A stretch of 24,969 nucleotides of DNA, from the IMG/VR virus record IMGVR_UViG_3300025411_000080, positions 1-24,969 of that record; one strand, written 5' to 3'. Below are positions 2 through 23,509 of this stretch, in pieces. Positions within the stretch are counted from its first letter, which is position 1. Each line of letters starts with the position of its first letter. The notes under the pieces were generated by a model. That model was not told where the DNA came from, did not search any database, and was given only the letters and a program-made list of their open reading frames with translations. Both the position numbers and the translations under genes were made by a program. The stretch is from a virus.

Positions 2-460
2 CCCGGCAATCCTTTTGCGGCAGGTAGCAAGATTGTGATGAAGTGTGATGGCAAGGCGCTATGGATGCGCTTACCATCAGGCAGACTTATCTGCTGGCAA
101 AGGCCAGAGCTCGATCTGCTCACCACTCCGTGGGGTAGTAAGAAAATGGGTGTTGTCGTCCATTCCCAAAACACTTACAGCAGGCAATGGAGCCGCAACG
201 CTCTTATTGGCAGCTCGATATTTCAATCCGCTGTTCAAGGAACTGCCCGGGACTTTCTTGCCGTGGCTATGCTTAATCTTGAAGCGAATGGTTTTCTGGT
301 AATCAATAGCATTCACGATGAGGTACTCCTCTTAGTGGAAGAACAAAACGGGGAGTCCGCGTTGGAGCAGGTCATTAAGATTATGACTACGCCTCCAGTA
401 TGGGCTCCCGATTTTCCTCTTGCTGCTGAAGGTTGGCACGGTAAACGTTACCGCAAGTGA
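2..460 (+). CDS. DNA polymerase family A, C-terminal fragment
   Basis: The frame is open to the left edge of the window, so this is the 3' end of a longer gene; the GTG at 35 is internal. The visible part of about 152 residues matches the end of the palm domain of PolI-type polymerases. It has a long helix containing SAVQGTARDFLAVAM, which corresponds to the family pattern QGxAAD..AM, followed after a short hydrophobic strand by the motif C residues His-Asp-Glu (SIHDEVLLLV). The acidic residue of HDE coordinates a catalytic metal in this family. It ends shortly after, as phage PolA proteins do. It would replicate the phage genome. It is the only plus-strand gene in the window and converges on the late structural block, overlapping its last gene by 13 bp. 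The family call is firm; whether a 3'-5' exonuclease domain is present cannot be seen. Confidence 0.88.
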   Translation, partial: PGNPFAAGSKIVMKCDGKALWMRLPSGRLICWQRPELDLLTTPWGSKKMGVVVHSQNTYSRQWSRNALIGSSIFQSAVQGTARDFLAVAMLNLEANGFLVINSIHDEVLLLVEEQNGESALEQVIKIMTTPPVWAPDFPLAAEGWHGKRYRK

Positions 461-4536: not shown

Positions 4537-5505
4537 TCAAGGCCCTTGCAATAAGTATGAATAATCTACACCATCTGATCCCATACCTGTTGTTGGGTCC
4601 ACAGTTACTCCATCTGGAATAGCATTTTGCATAACACTGCTAGCCGCGGTATTTCCGTATGTTGGATCAGTTATAACATTTCCGTTTGCGTCAGTAGTTT
4701 GACCAACACCCGGAGTGCTATTGCCAAATAAACCACCAACTAAACTAGCAATTGTTGTTCCTGGAGAAATTGTATTTAGCAACGCATTTAATCCTTGTGT
4801 ACCAGTGTTTAAACCGGTTAACAAACCCCCAATTTGGTTGATTGGGGCTAATTGAGTTGCATTTGTGGTTGTTGCGCCTGGGTTTACGGCAGATAAAATA
4901 TTTGCCAATTGGGCAGTTGATGTTAGGGGAGCTGCTTGTTGAGCTTGACCCAATGTTGTTTCTGTTGCAGTTCCTTGCTGCCCAATGTTTCCAAGTGCTG
5001 TGCTTGCGTTTACACCAGTTTGCTGGTTTGTTAAAGCAGATTGCATTTGAGCAGCAGCAAGGTTTGCTTGTGCGTTTGTTAATGCTGTATCGGCAGCAGT
5101 TGTGCCACGTAAACTACCAAACTGCCCAGAAGCAACTGCAGCTGCGTCAGCGGGGGCAGTAATTTGTGGAATTAAAGTTTGAAGTTGTTGGTTTTGAGCA
5201 GCATATAAACCACCTAACGCAGTGCTGGTATTTGGTGTAACTTGACCAGTTGTTGGGTTTACAATCCATGGATTCGCCGCTCCAGAAGCAATAGTTCCTA
5301 AAGCTCCCTGTGCTTGGGTGAATGGATTGTTTGGCCCGCTAAGATTATTAATAGCTTGCCCAGCAACAGTGTTTTGCAAAGTTGGCGCGTTTGCTGCACC
5401 AGAAACAGCATTATTTACAACGTTTTGTTGTGCAGTAGAATACCAAGATGGCAGCGTTGTTTGCGCTGTTGTCGTATTAGTTAATAGATTACTTAAGCCG
5501 GCCAT
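4537..5505 (-). CDS. probable internal/ejection virion protein, Ala-Gln-Thr-rich (322 aa)
   Basis: A low-complexity protein rich in Ala, Gln, Thr, Asn and Gly with almost no charged residues. Near the N-terminus is LPSWYSTAQQ. The middle part (about 127-180) begins with GQFGSLRGTTAAD and is a predicted amphipathic helix rich in Ala, Leu and Gln. The rest has Asn/Gly-rich linkers and a short hydrophobic Leu/Gly stretch around 225-270. This composition resembles small ejection proteins of podoviruses (P22 gp7 or T7 gp14 type), and it lies directly upstream of the M15 protein. I infer an ejection or internal role but see no diagnostic motif. Its ATG overlaps the upstream stop as TAATG, so translation is probably coupled. 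Confidence 0.5.
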   Translation of the reverse strand: MAGLSNLLTNTTTAQTTLPSWYSTAQQNVVNNAVSGAANAPTLQNTVAGQAINNLSGPNNPFTQAQGALGTIASGAANPWIVNPTTGQVTPNTSTALGGLYAAQNQQLQTLIPQITAPADAAAVASGQFGSLRGTTAADTALTNAQANLAAAQMQSALTNQQTGVNASTALGNIGQQGTATETTLGQAQQAAPLTSTAQLANILSAVNPGATTTNATQLAPINQIGGLLTGLNTGTQGLNALLNTISPGTTIASLVGGLFGNSTPGVGQTTDANGNVITDPTYGNTAASSVMQNAIPDGVTVDPTTGMGSDGVDYSYLLQGP

Positions 5506-7055
5506 TATTTTTTAACCTTTTTGTTAGCTTCTAACAAATAAGCCAACGGACCTTTACTATCCGGTGGTAGATGTTTTGCGTCATGTTTTTGTTTATGTTC
5601 TCTGATTGTTTCTAAAAAATTATCTAATACTTTAGAACCACTATCGTTACTACCATTACCTAACGAAGATACTACGTCAGCTGGAATTACAAACTCACCA
5701 TTGGCTAACATAGCTGGAACATCATCGGATGTGCCGTCTCCATTACCTTGAACATATCGATGTTTTAAACCGCCTTCGCTGTAAAATTCTGGTGTATGAA
5801 TACCTTCATTGGTTTCTACTCCGCCGCCAGTATTAAAATGAAATGGCGAAAAATGTGGACCAATAGCTGCAATATTTTCAGCTTGATAAGTTGGTATATT
5901 TAAACTTGCGTGTTTACCCATTGATAGCATTCTATCTGGATAACGAATTTTATCAGGACCTGCCGCGTAATCATATTCTTCCACATTACTACCTTCAGCA
6001 TATCCCGGAACTGATCCACCGGCCGCTAATGTAGGAGTTGTCATAGGAGTTGCAGGGGCAGTAACTCCTGCAGAAGGAATATCAGTATTGTATAATGGTT
6101 GATTATTTGAAAACGCCGCAGGATCTGGGTTAATTGTTCCCATTTTACCCGGTGTATAATTCGGCTGAATAACTTGGCTAGATGATGTGCCAGTATTTGT
6201 TCCAGTGTTGGTTCCGGTATTTAAATTAGACAAACCAGAATTTGTAGTGCCGGAGCCTTGGTTTGTGTGCGTTCCTAACGTTTGAGCAGAAGGAGCTAAT
6301 AAAGTATTTAATGCTTGATTTGCAAGAGTACCTATAACTTTATTGTTAAATACTTTACCAAGAGTGCTTTGCGAACCATCAGTTGGAGGGGTTGCCTCAG
6401 TATCTGTAGCTGGAGTAGATTCAATTACATTACCTTGGGCATCTGTCGTTAGGGTAGAGCCATCATCAAATGTTTGAGTAATATTGCCGGATGCGTCTGT
6501 AGTAGCGCCGGTTAAACTATTTGCATTAGTTATACCTTCTTGCGCTGTACTTAAAAGTGTATTACCTGATGAATTTAAAATTTCACCGGTTGAAGCATCT
6601 AAAAGATTACCACCACCAGCGTCAGTAATAAGACCTGAGGAAATAAGGTCGGTTGGTGCCATTCCAGCGGATAACATTTGACTTGCAGTTACACCGGCAG
6701 AAGCCATATCTGAAGCAGATATTCCAGCAGCCATTAAATTAGATACTGGTATTCCAGCTGAAACCATATCTGCTACTGGCACACCAGCTGATAACATACT
6801 ACTTGCTGATACACCAGCTGAAACCATTTCTGGCACAGATGCGCCAGCTGCAACTAAATCTGAAGCAGATACTCCGGCAGACACTAAATCAGAAACAGCA
6901 GCACCTGATGCAAGGGCGTCGGCTGTTGAAATATATCCGGCAGCAGCTTGAGCGGCAACGTCAGATGAGGCCAGCGTAAATGCTGAATCTCCAGCAAACG
7001 ATGATCCTAAAAAATCAGCAACCGGTGTTGCTATTAAATCTACTGTTCCGCCCAT
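5505..7055 (-). CDS. decapeptide-repeat virion protein with conserved C-terminal GTSD..GEFVIPADVV module
   Basis: A 516-residue protein with three parts. Residues about 40-145 hold ten tandem copies of a strictly ten-residue repeat of the form x-hydrophobic-x-[SA]-[AS]-G-[VI]-x-x-[ST], with glycines at 51, 61, 71 and so on to 141 and no indel. Residues about 150-340 are a Thr/Asn/Gly-rich linker. The C-terminus has GG-containing segments (AAGGSVPGYAEG, FNTGGGVET, YSEGGLKHRY) and, at about 438-465, the segment GDGTSDDVPAML followed by ANGEFVIPADVVSSLG. From memory, modules of this form occur in structural proteins of many uncultured phages, but their function is not known to me. Position between nozzle/GNAT and ejection proteins makes it a probable virion component. 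Start and upstream stop overlap as TAATG. Confidence 0.6.
   Translation of the reverse strand: MGGTVDLIATPVADFLGSSFAGDSAFTLASSDVAAQAAAGYISTADALASGAAVSDLVSAGVSASDLVAAGASVPEMVSAGVSASSMLSAGVPVADMVSAGIPVSNLMAAGISASDMASAGVTASQMLSAGMAPTDLISSGLITDAGGGNLLDASTGEILNSSGNTLLSTAQEGITNANSLTGATTDASGNITQTFDDGSTLTTDAQGNVIESTPATDTEATPPTDGSQSTLGKVFNNKVIGTLANQALNTLLAPSAQTLGTHTNQGSGTTNSGLSNLNTGTNTGTNTGTSSSQVIQPNYTPGKMGTINPDPAAFSNNQPLYNTDIPSAGVTAPATPMTTPTLAAGGSVPGYAEGSNVEEYDYAAGPDKIRYPDRMLSMGKHASLNIPTYQAENIAAIGPHFSPFHFNTGGGVETNEGIHTPEFYSEGGLKHRYVQGNGDGTSDDVPAMLANGEFVIPADVVSSLGNGSNDSGSKVLDNFLETIREHKQKHDAKHLPPDSKGPLAYLLEANKKVKK
6620..6935 (-). repeat. ten tandem 30-bp units coding a decapeptide repeat
   Basis: This stretch of the 516-aa gene encodes ten in-register ten-residue repeats such as DLVSAGVSAS, EMVSAGVSAS, SMLSAGVPVA and DMASAGVTAS. 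Glycine is invariant, hydrophobic residues are conserved at position 2, and the third base varies freely. The codon drift with amino-acid pattern kept indicates selection on the protein rather than recent DNA slippage. The pattern looks like a solenoid or helical repeat and resembles xxELxxAGfs-type repeats that I know from some bacterial and protist proteins. Confidence 0.8.
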
Positions 7056-15209: not shown

Positions 15210-15433
15210 TATTCACTCTTTTGAGTTGCAGCCTTTGCACCAATCATCACGCCAGATCCACCTAATGTGGTAGCTAGCCCCATGCCTAATTTTTCCAAGT
15301 CAATCTCGGTGCCATGAAACGCGGCAAATAGTGCAATACCTAAAAAACCAATAACGCAAATTACTGCACAAAAACGTGCAGCGCAGTATGTCTGGTTGTC
15401 GTCTTCGGTAAGGATGTCTTTAAACAGTTTCAT
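15209..15433 (-). CDS. small membrane protein, holin candidate (74 aa)
   Basis: This 74-residue protein starts MKLFKDILTEDDNQTYCAAR, followed by a strong membrane segment (about 18-40, ICVIGFLGIALFAAF) and a second Gly-rich weaker hydrophobic segment (GLATTLGGSGVMIGAKAA) before a charged tail. Two-membrane-segment proteins of this size in a lysis cassette, next to an SAR-type endolysin, are holin or pinholin candidates. Two more small membrane genes are upstream, so holin and antiholin cannot be told apart. Translation is probably coupled: its ATG overlaps the upstream stop as ATGA, and its own stop forms TAATG with Rz. Confidence 0.65.
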   Translation of the reverse strand: MKLFKDILTEDDNQTYCAARFCAVICVIGFLGIALFAAFHGTEIDLEKLGMGLATTLGGSGVMIGAKAATQKSE

Positions 15434-15615
15434 TTTTGGTTACCTGCTAGTAGCGCAACTACCACAGCGATAAGTTGCATGGTCCATTGCCGCGTGTCCC
15501 CTGTGGACAAACATGGTATCCAGTCTAATATACAGATTGATCCGATAGTTGCTGATACGCCCACAACATAAACTAATAACCAGATCAAAACTTGTCTGTA
15601 GTTATTGCTGTTCAT
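15430..15615 (-). CDS. small two-membrane-segment protein, holin candidate (61 aa)
   Basis: Sixty-one residues with two hydrophobic stretches, about 9-31 (LIWLLVYVVGVSATIGSICI) and 45-58 (MQLIAVVVALLAG), joined by a short polar loop with Cys and Trp. This fits a small holin-like protein. It has no recognisable family. It starts directly after the stop of the preceding gene, and its stop overlaps the start of the 74-aa gene (ATGA). Which of the three small membrane proteins forms the hole is not decidable from sequence. Confidence 0.6.
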   Translation of the reverse strand: MNSNNYRQVLIWLLVYVVGVSATIGSICILDWIPCLSTGDTRQWTMQLIAVVVALLAGNQK

Positions 15616-15837
15616 TTAATTTGGCTTGGTGGCAAAGTAGTGGCTTATAAAGCCAACAAACGAGCTCAATGCAGAGACCACCATCATGCCTGCCCACATA
15701 CCGCCTTTAGATTTATTTGCCAACTCACAAAGTTGCTCAACTGATTTTTCGAGTTTGTCGATCTTTTTCTCAAGCGAATCAACCGTTGCAACAAGTTGAC
15801 CATACTTAAATATGTCGATTTGGTTATCGTGGTCCAT
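15616..15837 (-). CDS. coiled-coil plus membrane protein, XhlA-like architecture (73 aa)
   Basis: Residues 16-42 form a heptad-like amphipathic helix (VDSLEKKIDKLEKSVEQLCE), and residues 48-67 (WAGMMVVSALSSFVGFISHY) form one C-terminal membrane segment. This order, coiled coil followed by a single membrane helix, resembles haemolysin XhlA-type and related phage lysis-associated proteins. It is the first of three small membrane genes before the spanins and endolysin. It may be a holin partner, antiholin or accessory lysis protein; the precise role is not shown. Confidence 0.6.
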   Translation of the reverse strand: MDHDNQIDIFKYGQLVATVDSLEKKIDKLEKSVEQLCELANKSKGGMWAGMMVVSALSSFVGFISHYFATKPN

Positions 15838-15841
15838 TTAA

Positions 15842-16054
15842 TTAGCCAATCAATGCTGTTACTTCAGCTTGTGTTAGTCCTAATGCTGTTAGTTTAGCTA
15901 GTGCAGAAGCCTTTGCATCTTTAGCGTTGATGATGCGGTACTGATTACCCCCAAAAGCACTGTTCGAGTTGACTTGAACGGCTGTGGGCGCTGAGGTAGC
16001 AGCCGTAAGCACTACGGTGTTACCTAACGGAGTGAAGGCTGCGGATACGCTCAT
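15842..16054 (-). CDS. hypothetical small structural-type protein (70 aa)
   Basis: The protein has an N-terminal beta-like part (SAAFTPLGNTVVLTAATSAP and QVNSNSAFGGNQYRIINAKD) and a C-terminal Ala/Leu-rich helical part (ASALAKLTALGLTQAEVTAL). The first half reads like the start of small phage head-decoration or fiber proteins, while the second half resembles the short helix-turn-helix C-termini found at the ends of other phage proteins. It could be a chimera of two short modules. It overlaps the upstream 57-aa gene by ATGA. No function can be assigned. Confidence 0.5.
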   Translation of the reverse strand: MSVSAAFTPLGNTVVLTAATSAPTAVQVNSNSAFGGNQYRIINAKDAKASALAKLTALGLTQAEVTALIG

Positions 16055-16224
16055 TGTACGGTTTCTTCCTTTTGTTCTGGTGCAGGTACTTGTGGATCTG
16101 CCTGATTCTTAATGTTTGCTAACAAATTCCATGCACCTGTTTTGGTCGGTAATTCACCTAACATTTGCAAAATGTAGTTCACTTCGTTAACAGACAATTC
16201 CAGTTTAATTGTTACATCTTCCAT
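16051..16224 (-). CDS. small phage protein (57 aa)
   Basis: Read by hand from the ATG at 16224, preceded by AAGGGGATATAA as a good ribosome binding site. The product starts MEDVTIKLELSVNEVNYILQ and continues MLGELPTKTGAWNLLANIKN. It looks like a short globular helix-strand protein, with a Pro/Glu-rich tail. From memory this sequence pattern is frequent in aquatic phages, without known function. Its TGA overlaps the next gene as ATGA. It fills an otherwise gene-free gap of about 195 nt between 16054 and 16251. Confidence 0.78.
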   Translation of the reverse strand: MEDVTIKLELSVNEVNYILQMLGELPTKTGAWNLLANIKNQADPQVPAPEQKEETVQ

Positions 16225-16250
16225 TTATATCCCCTTACGGTTGTTAAAAA

Positions 16251-16472
16251 TTACTTAGCAATAGCTTCTTCAAAAGGTGTTAAATCATTAGAGCCATAAT
16301 ATTCTGCACCTTTAGCAATTTGAATTTCAAGGTGTTCTTTATTGCGCTTAACTGTATCAGCCCATTCTGCATCAGTCATATCAGCAGGTTTTCCTGCGTT
16401 GATAAGGTTTACAGAATCCATAGCTGCTTTATAGTCTTGTGCTACTTGTTGTTCGTGTGTCATTTCAATCAT
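16251..16472 (-). CDS. hypothetical acidic small protein (73 aa)
   Basis: A soluble, charged helical protein (MTHEQQVAQDYKAAMDSVNL, then DMTDAEWADTVKRNKEHLEI). It has no membrane segment or Cys and no family that I can name. The ribosome binding site TTAGGAGC overlaps the stop region of the S74 fiber gene, two bases upstream, so translation follows the fiber. Position right after the chaperone-tagged fiber allows a fiber-assembly role, but nothing in the sequence demonstrates it. Confidence 0.6.
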   Translation of the reverse strand: MIEMTHEQQVAQDYKAAMDSVNLINAGKPADMTDAEWADTVKRNKEHLEIQIAKGAEYYGSNDLTPFEEAIAK

Positions 16473-16474
16473 TT

Positions 16475-18787
16475 TTATGCTCCTAATTTAGCTTGTAATG
16501 CGGCGATTTGCGCTGCTTGGGTTGTTACTAAGGTGTTAAGTTCTTGGATTGCTTTAAGAAGGACTACAGTTAAGCGTTCATATTGGAAGCCTTCGACTTC
16601 GCCTTCTGCGCCATAAGATACCAATTCTTTAATGCCAGCTTGGTCAACTTCATCAGCAATAATACCGAAATGGTCTAAAGTTTGGTCATCGCCTTCAGAT
16701 TTAGATTTGTAACGAACTGGTCTGAATTTATTGACATCAATAGATTCTAAATCACGAATATCTTGCTTGTATTTCAATGCTGAAGTAGAACGAACAAACT
16801 GACCGCTAGATGTAACGAACATATTGGCAGCACTAGCAGTTGTGCTTACATAGGCTTTAGGAACAAAAATGTCTTTGTTGTTATCTAGCCACAAATTAGG
16901 ATTACCATCACCATCAGATAACACAATGTAGTTACTTGATGTACGGATGTCTAGGCTGTTTTGATTGCCTGAGTAAGCACCAACAATAGTATTTTTAGAA
17001 CCACTTGTCATTAAGTTACCAGCAACAGAACCTAAAAATGAGTTATAAGTTCCTGTTGTAGCGTTTTGTCCAGCAAACGCACCTACATAAGTATTAACAC
17101 CATTTCCAGCAGAACCTAAATTGTGTGTTTGACCAGCTTGATAGCCTAAGAAAGTATTGTATGTAGAAACAGAGGTAGTATAACCAGCCTGCATACCAAA
17201 GAAAGCGTTACTTGCACCAGTAGTATTAGCATACCCAGCTTGATAGCCTACTGCTGTGTTATTAGAAGCGGTGGTGTTTGACTTCAAAGAACCTGTTCCA
17301 ACAGCCACATTATATGAACCTGTGGTGTTGCTATACATAGCTGGCAAAATTGAAGAACCAGCATCATATCCACCGATTGCTGTATTTGATTGACCTGTTG
17401 TATTTGCAGTAAGGACATTATCACCAACTGCTGTAATACCAGTTCCTGTTGTGTTTGCAGAAGCCGCTTCTCTGCCCAATCCTGTATTTCTTGCTCCTGT
17501 GTTTGTAGCTAATGCTCTATAACCAAAAGCTGAACTTCCATCTGCTGTGGTAGTGCTATATAGAGCTTGATAACCTACTGCTGTGTTATTAGATGCGGTG
17601 GTGTTTGCTTGAAGTGATTGGAAACCTAAAGCGGTATTGTTAGCGCCTGTTGTATTAGAATATAAAGCCGAGTTACCAAAAGCCGCATTATAGCCTCCTG
17701 TAGTATTTGCCAATAGCGCATTGCAACCAAAAGCATCTACCGCACCAGTTGTGGTGGCTCTTGCAGCTTGGTATCCAACCGCAGTATTTGCAATTCCAAC
17801 GCAAACATCGCTATATAATGCTTGATAACCTAAAGCAGTTACAACTCCACTAGTATTGTGGGTATACCCAGCTTGATAACCTACTGCTGTGTTATTAGAT
17901 GCGGTGGTGTTTGATGCAAGGGCTTGATAACCACCAGCAAAGTTATTGTTTCCAGAAGTATTTACCTGTAATGCTCCTTGACCAATAGCTGTGCTATTAC
18001 TACCTGTGCTATTAGCTTGCATAGCATATTGACCAATAGCTGTTAGATAACTACCTGTGGTATTTGATTGTAATGCTGCCTGACCAAAAGATGAATTATT
18101 TGTTCCTGTAGTAGTTCCATAACCAGAAGCTGCACCAATAAAAGTGTTATAAGCACCTGTCGTATTACTATACCCAGCCTGATAGCCTACTGCTGTGTTA
18201 TTAGATGCGGTGGTGTTTGCTTGAAGTGCTTGATTGCCAATAGCAATATTGTAAGAACCAGAAGTATTTTGATAAAGCGATTGCAAACCAAATGCAGAAT
18301 TATAGCTACCGCTATTATTGTTACTTAAAGATTGGTAACCAAATGCTTGGTTTTGTTGCGCTGAAGTTGCTGATGGTAAAGCATATTGACCAAAAGCTGA
18401 ATTATATCCACCAGTATTTGTAGCTGCTAAAGCACCATTACCTACAACAGTATTACTAGAAACACTACCACCACCCTTACCAACAGTAAGACCTGATATA
18501 GAAGCGTCATTAGCTAAAGTTAAGCTAGTGCCGTTAAAGGTCATATTGGCAGAACCAGCCAATGAACCGCTAGAGTTGTACTGAACTTGAGTATTGGAGC
18601 CACCAGCAATACCAGCACCGCCTTTACCAGCGATGATCTGCACAACACCGGCGTTGTCTTTATAGTACAACTTGCCGTCGGTGATGTTGATTGCCAACTC
18701 ACCATTGACGAGGTTAGCGGCCAACGGCGCTGTAGCCGCTGTGGTGCTGTAGTATAACGAAATTGGTGTGTAGCCCGTAGCTGCCAT
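16475..18787 (-). CDS. tail fiber with YadA-head-like repeats and S74 intramolecular chaperone
   Basis: A 770-residue fiber. Residues 1-60 have a virion-attachment-type start (LYYSTTAATAPLAANLVNGE, then LAINITDGKLYYKDNAGVVQ). Residues about 100-630 are tandem Asn/Thr/Gly-rich units with NTAxG motifs (NTTASNNTAVGYQAGY), the pattern of trimeric YadA-type head beta-rolls. Residues about 640-770 hold the S74 chaperone of endosialidase-type fibers: SALKYKQDI has Ser669 and Lys674 with the spacing (S+5=K) of the self-cleaving dyad, followed by FRPVRYK, HFGIIADEVDQ and a C-terminal coiled coil (TTQAAQIAALQAKLGA). The chaperone should trimerise the fiber, cleave itself before Ser669 and be released. 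It follows the glycosyltransferases, starts with AAGGAATAAAT ATG and contains long direct repeats. Confidence 0.88.
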   Translation of the reverse strand: MAATGYTPISLYYSTTAATAPLAANLVNGELAINITDGKLYYKDNAGVVQIIAGKGGAGIAGGSNTQVQYNSSGSLAGSANMTFNGTSLTLANDASISGLTVGKGGGSVSSNTVVGNGALAATNTGGYNSAFGQYALPSATSAQQNQAFGYQSLSNNNSGSYNSAFGLQSLYQNTSGSYNIAIGNQALQANTTASNNTAVGYQAGYSNTTGAYNTFIGAASGYGTTTGTNNSSFGQAALQSNTTGSYLTAIGQYAMQANSTGSNSTAIGQGALQVNTSGNNNFAGGYQALASNTTASNNTAVGYQAGYTHNTSGVVTALGYQALYSDVCVGIANTAVGYQAARATTTGAVDAFGCNALLANTTGGYNAAFGNSALYSNTTGANNTALGFQSLQANTTASNNTAVGYQALYSTTTADGSSAFGYRALATNTGARNTGLGREAASANTTGTGITAVGDNVLTANTTGQSNTAIGGYDAGSSILPAMYSNTTGSYNVAVGTGSLKSNTTASNNTAVGYQAGYANTTGASNAFFGMQAGYTTSVSTYNTFLGYQAGQTHNLGSAGNGVNTYVGAFAGQNATTGTYNSFLGSVAGNLMTSGSKNTIVGAYSGNQNSLDIRTSSNYIVLSDGDGNPNLWLDNNKDIFVPKAYVSTTASAANMFVTSSGQFVRSTSALKYKQDIRDLESIDVNKFRPVRYKSKSEGDDQTLDHFGIIADEVDQAGIKELVSYGAEGEVEGFQYERLTVVLLKAIQELNTLVTTQAAQIAALQAKLGA
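17247..18218 (-). repeat. higher-order 306-327 bp repeats within the S74 fiber
   Basis: A nearly identical stretch beginning CCTACTGCTGTGTTATTAG on the plus strand (coding TASNNTAVGYQ) starts at 17247, 17574, 17880 and 18186. The spacings are 327, 306 and 306 bp, all multiples of three. The match is nearly exact over about 33 bp, and the segments between copies are more diverged. Units of 102-109 residues thus sit on top of the shorter beta-roll repeats. Confidence 0.85.
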
Positions 18788-18789
18788 AT

Positions 18790-19227
18790 TTATTCCTTAT
18801 TAAGGTATGCTAATACTTCTTTTGGTTTTACAAATCGGTCGTTTTTATGTTCAACAAACTCCCACCATAGGAATTGGTTTTCTACTAAAGTTGACCGATC
18901 TTTTAGTAGGTTAATATTTTCTGGGTGGCCAAAAATAAAAGGATCTGATACTGACCACAACACTATTCCACTTTTGCCTTCATCCCACGCAAGGTGTTGA
19001 AAAAAGCTGTCAACGCCAATCCATGTTTTGCACTCCCTAAGCAACTGTCTTAACTCGCTTATTGGCAAGTTTTTTCTAAAGTCTGGTACCAGTTGCTTTT
19101 CGCCTTCTATTCCTACTTGGATAATTGGCTTGTCAATCTGACTAATCAATTCTTCCCAGTAAGGATAGTTCTTTGGGTTCTGTTTACCATTGCGCAGTTT
19201 TTGTGCATACGGGGCTATGATAATCAT
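18790..19227 (-). CDS. C-terminal half of a GT9 (heptosyltransferase-like) domain
   Basis: I place the start at the ATG at 19227 (MIIIAPYAQKLRNGKQNPKN), which overlaps the stop of the upstream gene as ATGA. A longer frame starting at 19275 would only add 16 residues overlapping the upstream gene. The 145-residue product resembles the C-terminal, nucleotide-sugar-binding Rossmann half of GT9 enzymes: WIGVDSFFQHLAWDEGKS with Asp73 and His78, then IVLWSVSDPFIFGHPENINL, matching the family's D-S/T-x-x-x-H-L-A and lfGxsdP patterns. The other half is fused to the end of the upstream GT2 gene. The two would have to associate, or be joined by frameshifting, to form a full GT-B enzyme. Confidence 0.7.
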   Translation of the reverse strand: MIIIAPYAQKLRNGKQNPKNYPYWEELISQIDKPIIQVGIEGEKQLVPDFRKNLPISELRQLLRECKTWIGVDSFFQHLAWDEGKSGIVLWSVSDPFIFGHPENINLLKDRSTLVENQFLWWEFVEHKNDRFVKPKEVLAYLNKE

Positions 19228-20198
19228 GTGTATAGCTTCCTGTACGCGTCTTCTAAACTGCCTTTCCATTTCCACTGATCCATTTTGCCGTATATGTTAT
19301 ACGGGCCAATGTCACCAAATAACTTCTCTGCTTGCGCTATTGATCTGCCGGGAACCACTTCAGGGTAGCATGTAAAAACTTCAGGGCTACGTATTGCAGG
19401 CAAAACATGACTAAATACAATGTGATCGCCAAGACCGCAATTGAGTACCACAATGGTCTTATCACGATACTGCAAAACATTCCTAAAAATTTGTTCATCA
19501 TAATCATACATCTCGCGTCTTGTTTCACTGCGAATCCCACCTTGTGGGTTCTTCATGTGCCATGTTACGGCATCTGGTACCGCTAAAATGCTGTAGCCTC
19601 TGCGGTGCAAGTTATAAGTAAATAGCGTCTCTTCTCTGTGCGCCACTCGGGACAAACCCAAATTATAATCTTGCACACCAGCGCGATACAAGAAGGTGCA
19701 ATGTAAATGCTCAACTTCTCTTGCTGTTGCTATCTTGCCCCACTGCACGTTGGGCTCACTATCAATGTTATCAATCTTACCGGTAACATTTCCGGTGTTT
19801 GGCATATATGGCGGGGTTAACACCGAACCACCTACAGCACCTAAATTGGGCCAGATTTGTGTCCAATGATACAAATTCTCAAGCACGTTGGCTTCCGGTA
19901 TTGCGTCATCATCACAACGCCAAACCCAATCGTAGCCCATCGTATTTGCGCGTTGGTGGATGTGGTGCTGACCTTTTTTATCAGCGTACTGCCACTCCCA
20001 TGCAATACCTTTTGCATCTAACATTTGAAAAAAGTATTGGTAAATCATCTCACTGCGCATGTCTTGTGGCTTGTCATTATCATCAAACACAACCAGCTTA
20101 TCTACTGGTTTGGTTTGGTTAATAATAGCGTTTAATACTAGTGGCAGTGTTGTAAAGTACCTCCCGCGTGTTGCCACGGAGCAGAGAACTTTACTCAC
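19224..20198 (-). CDS. GT2 glycosyltransferase fused to N-terminal half of a GT9 domain
   Basis: A 324-residue product from a GTG start that overlaps the previous gene by 8 nt. Residues 1-240 are a family 2 GT-A transferase: MSKVLCSVATRGRYFTTLPL at the N-terminus, then YDWVWRCDDDAIPE with the metal-binding DDD at 96-98, then a GLSRVAHREETLF acceptor-side loop. From about 247, DKTIVVLNCGLGDHIVFSHV and the following LPAIRSPEVFTCYPEVVP look like the first Rossmann strand and Gly loop of GT9 (heptosyltransferase) enzymes, ending after AEKLFGDIGPYNIY and LEDAYRKLYT. The C-terminal GT9 half is encoded separately by the next gene. It would add sugars to a phage or host glycan; the substrate is unknown. 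Confidence 0.75.
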   Translation of the reverse strand: MSKVLCSVATRGRYFTTLPLVLNAIINQTKPVDKLVVFDDNDKPQDMRSEMIYQYFFQMLDAKGIAWEWQYADKKGQHHIHQRANTMGYDWVWRCDDDAIPEANVLENLYHWTQIWPNLGAVGGSVLTPPYMPNTGNVTGKIDNIDSEPNVQWGKIATAREVEHLHCTFLYRAGVQDYNLGLSRVAHREETLFTYNLHRRGYSILAVPDAVTWHMKNPQGGIRSETRREMYDYDEQIFRNVLQYRDKTIVVLNCGLGDHIVFSHVLPAIRSPEVFTCYPEVVPGRSIAQAEKLFGDIGPYNIYGKMDQWKWKGSLEDAYRKLYT

Positions 20199-21465
20199 TT
20201 GCAGTCCACCGACAAATCATCAAGTTGCAAGGATTTGACGCGTCAATCTTTTGTGGTACATCTGTAATCTCGCCGTGCTCGTTGATGTAATTAAACTCAA
20301 AGCCCGAAAAGTGACGTTCGTTCAATCCATGCAGCTTATGATGTGGCCCCCAAAATCCGGGTGGCTCATTCATTGGCACAGTAATCAACAAACGCTTACA
20401 GTGCTTTTTAAGATTCTCAACAATCTCCATGCCGGTGTCAAGGTGCTCAATTACTTCAAACGCCACAATGGTGTCATACTGTTCTAGCTCGTAGGTGTTG
20501 ATGTCACACCATTCAAACTTAGCGTTGTACCCCCAGTCTTGTTCTTTAGCAACTTCAACAATGATTGGGTCGTAGTCTACGCCGGTATACTCAATGTCTT
20601 TTGGAAAAAATTGAATACCATAACCATTTGAACAACCAATTTCTAAAATTTTTTTACCGAGCAGATTTTTTGCTGCCCAGTTGTATCTTGTTACTTCGCG
20701 TGGGTATACCGTATCGCCTTTTAGAAATACTGCGCGTTCCCAAAAGTTTGATAAGCGCCAGCGGTACCATTCTGTGTTGTACTTTTTAGCTAACCTTAAT
20801 GAGTTAATTAAAAAGATGTTGTCCCAACCTTGTACTAAATTGGCGTCGTGCATGGTGCCTTCGCCTTTGTGGTAGATTGGAAAGCCGCCTGTATATTGCG
20901 TTCCATCCCACAACTTTTCAAACACTTCTAATACTTTAAAGCCAGCTTTTTCAGCTTCAATGCAAAATTCAGTATCTTCTCCGCCGCCTACGCCGTACTC
21001 TTCGTTTAGTAATCCGATTGTATCGAATACTCTGCGGTGAATCATAACACAAAAGAACACTGCAAAATCACGACCCGCTGGTTCAGAATTTCCTTTAATA
21101 ATGCAAGAGATTCCACAGTTTGGATCAACAAATGGCCTGTCTAAAATGTCAAGCCACTGGTTTTGATTTTGTTCCAACAAAACAGTGTCGTTATTTAACA
21201 AAACAATTTTGTTGCATGTTGCAACCTTAATGGCTGCGTTATTTGCTCCTGAGTACCCAAGTGCTTTGTCTGACCAAACCACTTTTAAATTGGGCACTGC
21301 TGTTGCCAAATAATCTAAGTATGCTTTTGTGTTATCTACACAACCGTTTGCGGATATAATTAATTCAATGTCTTCTAAGTTGGTATACTTAACAATTGAA
21401 TCCACACACGGCTTTAAATACTTTTCACAATGATTGTAAGTTGGTATTACAATGCTATATTTCAT
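20191..21465 (-). CDS. GT2 glycosyltransferase - SAM methyltransferase fusion
   Basis: The 424-residue protein is best started at the ATG at 21465, which follows TTTGAGGACAAT; the ATG six codons earlier has no ribosome binding site. Residues 1-240 are GT2: YSIVIPTYNHCEKYL, LIISANGCVDNT, LLNNDTVLL as the DxD-like site at 91-94, and the GGGEDTEFCIEAEKAG acceptor motif near 162-175. Residues about 265-400 are a class I methyltransferase: ILEIGCSNGYG (SAM-binding motif I, 273-283), VDYD after strand 2, FEVIEHL at 336-342. The enzyme could transfer a sugar and methylate it, a combination known in surface-glycan biosynthesis. It follows the collagen-like fiber by 37 nt and opens the glycan cassette. 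Confidence 0.85.
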   Translation of the reverse strand: MKYSIVIPTYNHCEKYLKPCVDSIVKYTNLEDIELIISANGCVDNTKAYLDYLATAVPNLKVVWSDKALGYSGANNAAIKVATCNKIVLLNNDTVLLEQNQNQWLDILDRPFVDPNCGISCIIKGNSEPAGRDFAVFFCVMIHRRVFDTIGLLNEEYGVGGGEDTEFCIEAEKAGFKVLEVFEKLWDGTQYTGGFPIYHKGEGTMHDANLVQGWDNIFLINSLRLAKKYNTEWYRWRLSNFWERAVFLKGDTVYPREVTRYNWAAKNLLGKKILEIGCSNGYGIQFFPKDIEYTGVDYDPIIVEVAKEQDWGYNAKFEWCDINTYELEQYDTIVAFEVIEHLDTGMEIVENLKKHCKRLLITVPMNEPPGFWGPHHKLHGLNERHFSGFEFNYINEHGEITDVPQKIDASNPCNLMICRWTASE

Positions 21466-21502
21466 ATTGTCCTCAAAGTTCATACGAACTTATATTATAT
21501 TA

Positions 21503-23509
21503 CTAAAATGTTCCGCCTGTCACCCCGCCGGTAAAGGCGTTAGTTACGGAATTGTATGTTAAGCCAGTGTTTACATAAGGGGCTTGGCTGCCTGTTGTTC
21601 CAGAAACAAAAGTAACGTATCCGGGGTTTAGGGTACTGGTGGTGGTTACGGATATGGCTGTTGGAGTCACACCACTGTAACCAGAGATGCCGCTGTAGCC
21701 GGAGATACCGCTATAGCCAGAAATACCACTGTATCCACTGTAGCCAGAGATACCGCTGTAACCAGAGATACCGCTAAAACCGCTGTAACCAGAGATACCA
21801 CTGTAGCCAGAAATACCGCTGTAGCCAGAAATACCGCTGTAGCCAGAGATACCAGAATATCCGCTGTAACCAGAAATACCAGAATATCCGCTGTAACCAG
21901 AGATACCGCTGTAACCAGAGATACCGCTGTAACCAGAGATACCGCTGTAACCAGAGATACCGCTGTAACCAGAGATACCGCTGTAACCAGAGATACCGCT
22001 GTAACCAGAGATACCGCTGTAACCGCTGTAGCCAGAGATACCAGAATATCCGCTGTAGCCAGATATGCCGCTGTAACCAGAGATACCAAAATATCCGCTA
22101 TAACCAGAAATGCCGCTGTAGCCTGATTTTCCGCTGTATCCGCTAAAACCACTAAAACCAGAGAAACCGCTTATGCCGTTTGCAATGGCAAAAATGATTG
22201 GTAAATTGTTTGCAAATCCGGTTGTGCCTGTACCCGAAGAGCTTACCAATGAAGCGGGGATTGTATAGTATCCACCAGCGTTTGTTGGGGTTCCAGTGAT
22301 AATCCAAGTTTGTTGGTTAGCACTGTTGCTTTGATCTTGAATAACAACTTCTTCAGTCGTTGCAAGCAAAGCCAAAAATACGCTAATGTCAACACCATTT
22401 GCTGCCGTTGTGCTGACGTTTAATTGTGTTGCACTTGTTTGTGTGGCGTTGTTCCACAACAAATAATCTATTCCGGGGTTACCGCTGGTAGCAGAAGTAT
22501 TTGCTTTATAAAAATAATAACTGCTTGATATACCGCTTGCGCCGCTGTAACCTGATATTCCGGAACCGCTGTAACCAGAGATACCGCTGTAACCAGAGAT
22601 ACCGCTGTAACCAGAGATACCGCTGTAGCCAGAATAGCCACTAAAACTAGAATAACCAGATGTGCCAGAATACCCGCTATAGCCGCTATAGCCGCTTATT
22701 CCAGATCCAGAGTACCCAGATATGCCTGAGAAGCCAGAAAGGCCTGAAACGCCGCTATAGCCCGAAATACCGCTATATCCACTGTAGCCAGAGATACCGC
22801 TGTATCCTGAATAGCCAGAAATCCCTGACCAACCGCTGTATCCGCTGTAGCCTGACACGCCAGAACCACTATAGCCAGAGATGCCTGAAAAACCAGAAAG
22901 ACCAGACACACCACTATAGCCAGATGTTCCGCTATACCCGCTGTAACCTGATATACCAGAGATACCAGAGTAGCCAGAGATGCCAGACCAGCCACTATAA
23001 CCGCTATAACCAGATACACCAGAACCTGAGTAGCCAGAGATACCAGAAAATCCAGAAAGACCCGATACGCCACTAAAACCTGATATGCCGCTATATCCAG
23101 AATATCCACTAATACCTGAATAACCAAACGCGCCACTGATACCAGAGTATCCAGAAAAACCACTGGTTCCTGATTTACCGCTGTATCCAGAAGTACCAGA
23201 AAAACCACTGTAGCCAGATACACCGCTAAAACCCGATGTACCTACGCCGCTATAACCAGAGTATCCACTATAACCAGACCAGCCAGAAATAGGGCCAATA
23301 ACTTGTTGTGTGCCATCGCTGTAATAAATTACTAAATCGCCATTCGATGGAACGTAAACAATTGTAGTGATCAGTTTGCCGGGCGACGCAGCATTGGCAA
23401 TCTGTGATACAGACGCCTGCTTTGTTACTCCGTTTTGTACCAGCGGTACCTGTTCGTTACCAGTTAAGGTGATCGCAACAGGCAGCTGCGTTATCGACTG
23501 ATCTGCCAT
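21503..23509 (-). CDS. collagen-like Gly-X-Ser tail fiber
   Basis: A 668-residue fiber. Residues 1-75 are a virion-attachment-type start (ITQLPVAITLTGNEQVPLVQ, then NGVTKQASVSQIANA). Two blocks of Gly-X-Ser triplets follow: about 76-328 and 445-615, with X mostly Tyr, Ile, Phe, Val or Trp and Y almost always Ser, and no Pro in the triplets. Between them is a 115-residue beta-rich domain (SYYFYKANTSATSGNPGIDY through IPASLVSSSGTGTTGFANNL). The C-terminus (about 615-668) is another beta segment ending in GGTF. A few breaks (GSGVSG) recur in the first block. The protein should be a trimeric fiber; lack of Pro makes a classical collagen helix uncertain. There is no clear ribosome binding site, only an A-rich leader. 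Confidence 0.85.
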   Translation of the reverse strand: MADQSITQLPVAITLTGNEQVPLVQNGVTKQASVSQIANAASPGKLITTIVYVPSNGDLVIYYSDGTQQVIGPISGWSGYSGYSGYSGVGTSGFSGVSGYSGFSGTSGYSGKSGTSGFSGYSGISGAFGYSGISGYSGYSGISGFSGVSGLSGFSGISGYSGSGVSGYSGYSGWSGISGYSGISGISGYSGYSGTSGYSGVSGLSGFSGISGYSGSGVSGYSGYSGWSGISGYSGYSGISGYSGYSGISGYSGVSGLSGFSGISGYSGSGISGYSGYSGYSGTSGYSSFSGYSGYSGISGYSGISGYSGISGYSGSGISGYSGASGISSSYYFYKANTSATSGNPGIDYLLWNNATQTSATQLNVSTTAANGVDISVFLALLATTEEVVIQDQSNSANQQTWIITGTPTNAGGYYTIPASLVSSSGTGTTGFANNLPIIFAIANGISGFSGFSGFSGYSGKSGYSGISGYSGYFGISGYSGISGYSGYSGISGYSGYSGISGYSGISGYSGISGYSGISGYSGISGYSGISGYSGISGYSGYSGISGYSGYSGISGYSGISGYSGISGYSGISGYSGFSGISGYSGISGYSGYSGISGYSGISGYSGISGYSGVTPTAISVTTTSTLNPGYVTFVSGTTGSQAPYVNTGLTYNSVTNAFTGGVTGGTF
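21667..22178 (-). repeat. Gly-X-Ser repeat block 2, with perfect 18-bp minisatellite
   Basis: About 170 residues of Gly-X-Ser. Within it, 21888-22013 is seven perfect tandem copies of ccgctgtaaccagagata (plus strand), coding GYSGIS on the minus strand, flanked by diverged copies. Exact identity of seven consecutive units, against synonymous drift elsewhere, indicates recent copy-number change by slippage or recombination. Confidence 0.92.
22525..23284 (-). repeat. Gly-X-Ser repeat block 1, with three higher-order modules
   Basis: About 250 residues of Gly-X-Ser. A larger unit carrying VSGLSGFSGISGYSGSG, with the same Gly-Ser-Gly interruption, occurs three times, and two copies continue into the same VSGYSGYSGWSGISGYSG. 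The interruption shifts the triplet frame at regular intervals, suggesting flexible hinges. Confidence 0.85.

What the first reader, a model, noticed from the sequence alone, without database searches (positions are those of the whole stretch)
18790..20198. A GT9 glycosyltransferase domain split between two overlapping genes
The end of the GT2 protein (from residue 247, NCGLGDHIVFSH) looks like the first Rossmann half of a GT9 enzyme and the next gene (D73, H78, SDPFIFG) like the second half. The genes overlap by ATGA and lie in different frames. Either two polypeptides form one GT-B active site, or a frameshift makes a single GT2-GT9 fusion, or one is a recent break or assembly error. A functional two-subunit GT9 would be unusual.
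Basis: partly seen in the sequence, partly recalled or inferred. Interest (0 to 1): 0.58.

Follow-up and report, generated by a model that had tools for sequence, protein, structure and literature searches.

The report
Conserved two-gene GT9-like phage glycosyltransferase
In a large group of lake phages, a sugar-transferring enzyme that normally is one protein chain is encoded by two overlapping genes, one of which also carries a second sugar-transferase domain; the split is shared and kept by selection, so it is not a sequencing error, but that the two chains work together is still inferred.

Summary
Gene 1 (20198-19224, minus strand) is a GT2 domain followed by about 78 residues with a GxGDH motif; gene 2 (19227-18790) is 145 residues that match the whole C-terminal (donor-binding) domain of GT9 heptosyltransferases. 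The genes overlap by ATGA. The split is no recent break or assembly error: 301 of 301 held loci with both halves are split here, 0 fused, including isolated phage P19250A. Programmed frameshift is disfavoured: 0 of 131 distinct junctions has a slippery heptamer, and two loci have another frame relation yet remain split. A ribosome-binding-like purine tract before gene 2 is kept. Both halves are under purifying selection. Key WaaC residues have counterparts spread over the two chains: D13 in gene 1 (by motif); K192, D261, H266 in gene 2. The C-half as a GT9 domain is well supported. The N-half as the GT9 N-lobe is only suggested (right-place profile alignment; WaaC top but tied in a structure comparison; Foldseek nothing) and it is much smaller than known N-lobes. 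A complex was not tested. Best reading: a two-chain GT9-like GT-B enzyme, analogous to Alg14/Alg13 of another family, in a cassette beside tail-fibre genes.

The parts
19224..20198 (-). Gene 1: GT2 (GT-A) domain, about residues 1-245, plus C-terminal GxGDH mini-domain; 324 aa, GTG start
   Evidence: ORF; Pfam GT2 in 70 of 70 aligned relatives, best 9e-9; D96 D97 D98 invariant in 70 of 70
19227..19460 (-). N-half: proposed reduced GT9 N-lobe (residues 247-324), GLGDH with D258 at 19425-19427
   Evidence: AF2 pLDDT 97.0, pTM 0.86, beta-alpha-beta plus three helices; G, G, D, H invariant in 99 of 99; GT9 assignment suggestive only (against: 64, 67, 73)
18790..19227 (-). Gene 2: GT9-like C-domain, 145 aa; K19 (19171-19173), D73 (19009-19011), H78 (18994-18996)
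   Evidence: Pfam PF01075 hit in 100 of 100 relatives; Foldseek/VIA to WaaF, WaaC, TibC C-domains; hhalign E 2.2e-13 to 74 cellular GT9 proteins
19224..19227 (-). ATGA stop/start overlap of the two genes
   Evidence: sequence; ATGA or GTGA in 299 of 301 loci
19236..19241 (-). AGGAAG, ribosome-binding-site-like tract 8 nt before the ATG of gene 2, inside the RK codons of gene 1
   Evidence: 0 of 122 pyrimidine-ending Arg codons at this place against 15-70% at eight other conserved Arg positions
20191..21483 (-). Upstream gene: GT2 plus methyltransferase fusion, overlaps gene 1 by 8 nt; usual upstream neighbour
   Evidence: Pfam; -8 nt gap in 61 of 95 loci with an upstream ORF found
16475..18787 (-). 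Downstream gene: repeat-rich tail spike/fibre protein with weak S74 chaperone match
21503..23509 (-). Collagen-like (SGYSG) tail fibre upstream of the cassette

Best explanation
The pair encodes a genuine two-chain GT9-like GT-B glycosyltransferase. Gene 1 makes a GT2 enzyme with the small acceptor-side (N) lobe of a GT9-like enzyme at its C-terminus; gene 2, translated from the overlapping ATG by coupled or local re-initiation, makes the donor-binding (C) domain. The two chains would meet so that the Asp of GLGDH (gene 1) faces Lys19, Asp73 and His78 (gene 2) across the cleft, as D13 faces K192, D261 and H266 within one WaaC chain. The complex would so join two transferase activities (GT2 and GT9) and, from its place between tail-fibre genes and beside a GT2-methyltransferase gene, most likely builds a glycan on tail fibres. 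Shown: conserved split, sequence signs of separate translation, purifying selection, C-domain identity, invariant residues. Inferred: N-lobe identity, complex formation, activity, substrate.
For: 301 of 301 held loci with both halves are split, none fused; the 80 loci found with gene 2 alone and the 78 new ones found with the N-half alone all hold the other half next door. Two DNA patterns for an in-frame fusion found 1 (unrelated) and 0 stretches in the viral contigs, against at least 120 for the split form. Gene 2 begins exactly at the C-domain: model residues 1..145 match WaaF 182-344 (Z 12.8, rmsd 2.7, 128 aligned), WaaC 180-320 (Z 12.7, rmsd 2.3, 119) and TibC 218-388 (Z 12.5, rmsd 2.8, 138); hhalign E 2.2e-13. 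K192, D261, H266 of WaaC align with K19, D73, H78, present in 131 of 131 distinct loci; the D of GxGD is present in all 128 whose contig covers it. In WaaC, D13A, D261A and K192A drop activity 4688-, 2027- and 926-fold (PMC5713226, passages). dN/dS medians 0.154 (N-half, 538 pairs) and 0.085 (C-half, 97 pairs). The N-half aligns at the beta1-alpha1 'GD' start of GT9 proteins; that score at that place is reached in 1 of 400 column shuffles, for each of two templates. In the second look at N-half structure matches the top chain of 368 was WaaC residues 1-149 (Z 3.9, rmsd 3.5, 77 aligned).
Against: Foldseek finds no meaningful match for the N-half in PDB (best prob 0.12) or BFVD; WaaC's Z 3.9 is tied with unrelated folds; hhalign of the N-half by score alone is not significant (36 of 200 shuffles reach it for cellular GT9, 5 of 200 for phage one-chain GT9-like; hhalign prob 0.3 against six GT9). 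The N-half has two strands; even the reduced TibC N-lobe has four (PMC4358343, passages). Protein distances of N and C are not better correlated (0.34) than those of GT2 parts and C (0.39-0.50), so no special co-evolution of the halves is seen. No complex was modelled or assayed. The heptosyltransferase signature D(T/S)(A/G)XXH is DSFFQH here, so the third position differs.
Confidence: 0.62

Rival explanations
1. Two independent proteins: gene 1 is a GT2 enzyme whose C-terminal mini-domain is only an accessory or docking domain, and gene 2 is a stand-alone GT9 C-domain that binds a nucleotide sugar or regulates, without a joint active site.
For: N-half not recognised as a GT9 N-lobe by Foldseek; only two strands; no extra co-evolution.
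Against: Strict adjacency in 301 of 301 loci; gene 2 begins exactly at the domain boundary and a lone C-domain would lack the acceptor side and the catalytic base; motif residues of both lobes invariant; N-half aligns at the right place of GT9.
Confidence: 0.23
2. A programmed -1 frameshift or similar recoding makes one GT2-GT9 fusion chain, alone or beside the short product.
For: Frames are -1 related in 299 of 301 loci.
Against: 0 of 131 distinct junctions have an X XXY YYZ heptamer in the usable stretch; in 80 of 131 a stop lies 12 nt before the gene 2 start; the last codon of gene 1 varies; L225 and L227 have a +1 relation and a 26-nt overlap; the RBS-like tract is kept.
Confidence: 0.05
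3. Recent break, pseudogene or assembly/sequencing error of a fused GT2-GT9 gene.
For: GT9-like enzymes are usually one chain, e.g. Pelagibacter phage HTVC111P gp53.
Against: Same split in 301 of 301 loci, 131 distinct junctions, and in an isolated phage genome; no fused form found; purifying selection on both genes.
Confidence: 0.01
4. Two-chain enzyme as in the best explanation, but acting on host surface polysaccharide (O-antigen or LPS) rather than on tail fibres.
For: GT2 and GT9 enzymes commonly build LPS (family knowledge, recalled); GtrB-like PHROG match of the upstream gene.
Against: The genes lie between tail-fibre genes in the window and often before a tail-fibre-like gene elsewhere; no flippase or anchor gene was seen among the window genes scanned, which does not exclude host ones.
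Confidence: 0.09

Closest known systems
GT9 heptosyltransferases WaaC/WaaF (HepI/HepII)
   Same: C-half matches their whole C-domain; K192, D261, H266 counterparts conserved; GD motif at the start of the N-half
   Different: They are one chain with a full N-domain; here two chains, N-half about 80 residues, signature third residue F, GT2 domain fused in front; sugar donor unknown
TibC / bacterial autotransporter heptosyltransferases (BAHT)
   Same: Best Foldseek hits of the C-half; also a reduced N-lobe (residues 98-195, four strands); a D110A mutant was used for the ligand structure (PMC4358343, passages); acts on protein
   Different: TibC is one chain with an N-terminal beta-barrel and a four-cysteine iron finger; gene 2 has one cysteine, and a GT2 domain takes the place before the N-lobe
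Alg14/Alg13 and EpsE/EpsF two-chain GT-B enzymes (GT1/GT28 type)
   Same: N-domain and C-domain of one GT-B enzyme on two chains, split at the domain boundary (PMC8993221, passages)
   Different: Another sequence family; no GT28/Alg14 Pfam match listed for 100 gene-2 and 70 gene-1 relatives; Alg14 carries a membrane-association domain, gene 1 a GT2 domain
Pelagibacter phage HTVC111P gp53 and relatives (80 loci)
   Same: Phage GT9-like protein next to a tail-fibre gene; hhalign to the C-half E 2.7e-9
   Different: One chain of 293 aa, no GT2 domain; direct similarity to gene 2 is weak (tblastn E 0.4)

Membership tests
GT9 (Pfam PF01075) | Profile match of the C-terminal domain | tested here: met
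   100 of 100 gene-2 relatives hit it at E up to 10, best 1.3e-7; the window protein itself scores 17.7 bits, below the 22-bit cut-off; two relatives pass the cut-off in the genome search (29.7 and 23.2 bits)
GT9 (Pfam PF01075) | C-domain fold | tested here: met
   Z 11.8-12.8 to the seven GT9 entries listed, next family 10.7
GT9 (Pfam PF01075) | N-terminal Rossmann lobe on the same chain | tested here: not met
   Different gene in 301 of 301 loci; hence 'GT9-like'
GT9 (Pfam PF01075) | N-lobe fold present anywhere in the pair | tested here: inconclusive
   Right-place profile alignment, 1 of 400 shuffles; WaaC 1-149 top but tied, Z 3.9; Foldseek none
ADP-heptosyltransferase (WaaC type) | Signature D(T/S)(A/G)XXH (PMC3559599, passages) | tested here: not met
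   DSFFQH or a close variant (DSFMQH, DSFIQH, DSFVQH, DTFFQH) in 128 of 128: D, S/T and H kept, third position F; so not filed as a heptosyltransferase
ADP-heptosyltransferase (WaaC type) | ADP-heptose as donor | not testable with these tools
   needs an enzyme assay
Two-chain GT-B enzymes (Alg14/Alg13, EpsE/EpsF) | N and C domains on separate chains, split at the domain boundary | tested here: inconclusive
   The C side is met: gene 2 residue 1 at C-domain start, conserved split; the N side depends on the unproved N-lobe
Two-chain GT-B enzymes (Alg14/Alg13, EpsE/EpsF) | GT1/GT28-type sequence family | tested here: not met
   no such Pfam family listed among members of A4 and A6
Two-chain GT-B enzymes (Alg14/Alg13, EpsE/EpsF) | Physical complex needed for activity | not testable with these tools
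   no complex prediction or assay available
TibC/BAHT | Four-cysteine iron finger in the C-lobe | tested here: not met
   gene 2 has a single cysteine, C66
Programmed -1 frameshift genes | Slippery heptamer before the stop | tested here: not met
   0 of 131

The most novel reading that the evidence does not exclude
A two-chain GT9-type enzyme of a kind not described in the papers I could search: a three-domain, two-gene machine in which a GT2 (GT-A) enzyme carries a minimal GT9 N-lobe that completes, in trans, the active site of a separately made GT9 C-domain, giving phages a compact two-step glycosylation unit for their tail fibres.
Probability: 0.45. Interest if true: 0.68.

Novelty: new variant of a known kind. 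Interest (0 to 1): 0.52.

Why it matters
Two-chain GT-B enzymes are described in what I read for Alg14/Alg13 and EpsE/EpsF (PMC8993221, passages); my searches of the paper library found none for GT9. If right, the pair shows that GT9 active sites too can be shared between chains, gives a very small N-lobe for studying what the acceptor side of a GT-B enzyme minimally needs, and names a widespread, unannotated cassette of freshwater phages (hypothetical proteins in P19250A). It also warns annotation pipelines: the window's gene 2 lies under the Pfam cut-off and gene 1's C-terminal part matches nothing there.

Tried and rejected
Assembly error or recent break: rejected by the conserved split. 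Frameshift: rejected by absence of slippery heptamers, by upstream stops and by the different frame relation in L225 and L227. In-frame fused relatives: DNA patterns gave one hit, L582, with no similarity to either half beyond chance, and none. The 116 loci newly fetched by the split pattern are all split, but that pattern demands the split, so they are no independent test.

Led nowhere: PHROGs for either protein (none convincing); plasmids (none); whole window against phages by megablast (none); N-half in PDB and BFVD by Foldseek; GT2+N profile against PDB sequences (no glycosyltransferase hit); co-evolution of distances (no special N-C signal). The first tries at dN/dS and at distances stopped with script errors (the mapping and shuffle results had already printed) and were redone. 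A search of 386 cellular genomes for gene-2 relatives gave matches in 17: one, G003, is the genome of the known cassette contig L224 (E 2.2e-77); the other 16 have weak matches (E 3.2e-7 or weaker) to open frames of 253-416 aa, not further classified. WaaC E222 falls in an alignment gap, so no counterpart is claimed. The GT9 comparison set took 74 of 80 loci; six without a suitable open frame of 280-480 aa were dropped. Neighbour scans used 33 upstream types plus the window (less one near-duplicate) plus P19250A, and 51 of 82 downstream types.

Full report
What is there. Two genes on the minus strand overlap by ATGA. Gene 1 (20198-19224, 324 aa) carries a GT2 domain and a C-terminal mini-domain; gene 2 (19227-18790, 145 aa) follows in the -1 frame. 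The window is a 24,969-base virus record without a megablast relative among 50,697 phage records.

Is the split real? By protein search at E 1e-3 the only phage-collection relative of both genes is Methylophilaceae phage P19250A, with two adjacent 'hypothetical' genes, the same 4-base overlap and 66-70% identity; it is called a siphovirus of the freshwater LD28 group in PMC8163748 (passages). Searches of IMG/VR with each half alone, with an N-half profile and with a divergent gene 2 gave 158, then 62, then 76 new loci, and one search of the genome collection gave three MAG contigs. Of 302 held loci, 301 carry both halves, the remaining one being the one-chain Pelagibacter phage protein; 301 of 301 are split and none fused. 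299 have ATGA or GTGA; L225 and L227 have gene 2 in the +1 frame with a 26-base overlap. Many loci share contigs or are near identical: distinct 120-base junctions number 131.

One chain or two? No junction has a slippery heptamer (0 of 131), and in 80 of 131 the gene 2 frame is closed by a stop 12 nt before its start. The last codon of gene 1 varies between TTA, CTA, ACA, GCA and others. The Arg codon of the conserved RKLY motif, which sits where a ribosome-binding site for gene 2 would lie, never ends in a pyrimidine (0 of 122) although eight other conserved Arg positions do so in 15-70% (the sequences are related, so this is not a probability). A plain search for Shine-Dalgarno-like 4-mers at -16 to -5 finds one in 56 of 131, so the tract is purine-rich rather than a strict consensus; in the window it is AGGAAG-N8-ATG. 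I read this as selection for a ribosome-binding site, so gene 2 is made by its own or by coupled initiation. Both parts are under purifying selection: median dN/dS 0.145 (end of GT2, 285 pairs), 0.154 (N-half, 538 pairs), 0.085 (gene 2, 97 same-length pairs), among 128 distinct loci and counting only pairs with dS 0.1-1.

What is gene 2? All 100 aligned relatives hit Pfam GT9, best 1.3e-7; the window protein is under the cut-off. The AF2 model (pLDDT 89.9, pTM 0.85) matches TibC, WaaC, WaaF and 3tov (best E 1.5e-3, prob 1.00), and residues 1..145 span the C-domains of WaaF, WaaC and TibC with Z 12.5-12.8; the nearest other family, UDP-GlcNAc 2-epimerases, has Z 10.7. hhalign gives E 2.2e-13 against 74 cellular GT9 proteins (columns 174-323 of 327) and 4.5e-8 against a smaller set. 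WaaC K192, D261, T262, H266 align with K19, D73, S74, H78 (the underlying sequence match is weak by itself, E 0.08). These are residues that mutagenesis and structure mark in WaaC (PMC5713226 and PMC3559599, passages read). K, D and H are present in 131 of 131 distinct loci.

What is the N-half? AF2 gives a confident but small fold, beta-alpha-beta plus three helices (pLDDT 97.0). GxGDH is kept in all 128 distinct loci whose contig covers it; the one 'GDC' reported by the pattern is a false start in L297, which has an ordinary GAGDH further on. Profile comparison puts KTIVVLN-CGLGDHIVF on the 'GD' start of cellular GT9 proteins and of the phage one-chain family. By score alone this is weak (36 of 200 and 5 of 200 shuffles reach it); score and place together are reached by 1 of 400 shuffles in each case. 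Foldseek sees nothing; the second-look aligner ranks WaaC residues 1-149 first of 368 chains, but at Z 3.9, tied with others. TibC shows that GT9 N-lobes can be reduced: residues 98-195, four strands instead of six, helices on one side (PMC4358343, passages). The N-half here is smaller still. I therefore hold its identity as probable, not shown.

Context. The usual upstream gene is a GT2-methyltransferase fusion (of 34 different upstream proteins scanned, GT2 in 27 and the Methyltransf_12 domain in 25), overlapping gene 1 by 8 nt in 61 of 95. Downstream lie tail-fibre or collagen-like proteins in many loci (of 51 scanned, the commonest PHROG, collagen-like minor tail, is in 18). In the window a collagen-like SGYSG fibre gene lies upstream and a repeat-rich fibre gene downstream. 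A virion-glycosylation role is therefore the favoured guess, and only a guess.

Comparison. It works like Alg14/Alg13 and EpsE/EpsF, where the N- and C-domains of a GT-B enzyme are separate chains (PMC8993221, passages), but belongs to another family. It is GT9-like by its C-domain; I do not file it as a heptosyltransferase, because the signature's third position differs and the donor is unknown. No paper on a two-chain GT9 appeared in four searches, of which I saw the listings only apart from the papers named here; the library holds open-licence PMC papers only.

Verdict. Against it stand the missing fold match of the N-half, its small size, no excess co-evolution of N and C (0.34 against 0.39-0.50 for GT2 parts and C), and the lack of any test of a complex.

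Noticed in passing
20191-21483 (-): GT2 plus SAM-methyltransferase fusion directly upstream, a common partner of the pair in other phages; its role in the glycan is open.
   Followed up: partly
21503-23509 (-): Very repetitive SGYSG/SGISG collagen-like tail fibre, a possible acceptor rich in Ser and Tyr.
   Followed up: no
L223, L224, L225: The cassette sits in contigs of MAGs labelled Mucilaginibacter, an uncultured bacterium and Nitrosotalea; more likely phage contigs binned with them than host genes.
   Followed up: no
L305:37-2025: One-chain 662-aa protein with an N-terminal part I read (recalled, not searched) as GT8-like and a C-terminal GT9 domain: a glycosyltransferase fused to GT9 on one chain.
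   Followed up: no
15210-16474: About 1.2 kb between the spanin-like gene and the fibre gene without an ORF of 80 aa or more lying wholly inside it.
   Followed up: no
35-460 (+): DNA polymerase-like fragment on the opposite strand at the window edge (phrog_7766, 1.2e-29).
   Followed up: no
5505-7055 (-): Decapeptide-repeat region (PF25296, 3.5e-18) in a protein with a weak tape-measure match.
   Followed up: no
gene 1 relatives (alignment A6): 35 of 70 members weakly match RE_AspBHI_N (best 5.5e-4); probably chance, unexplained.
   Followed up: no
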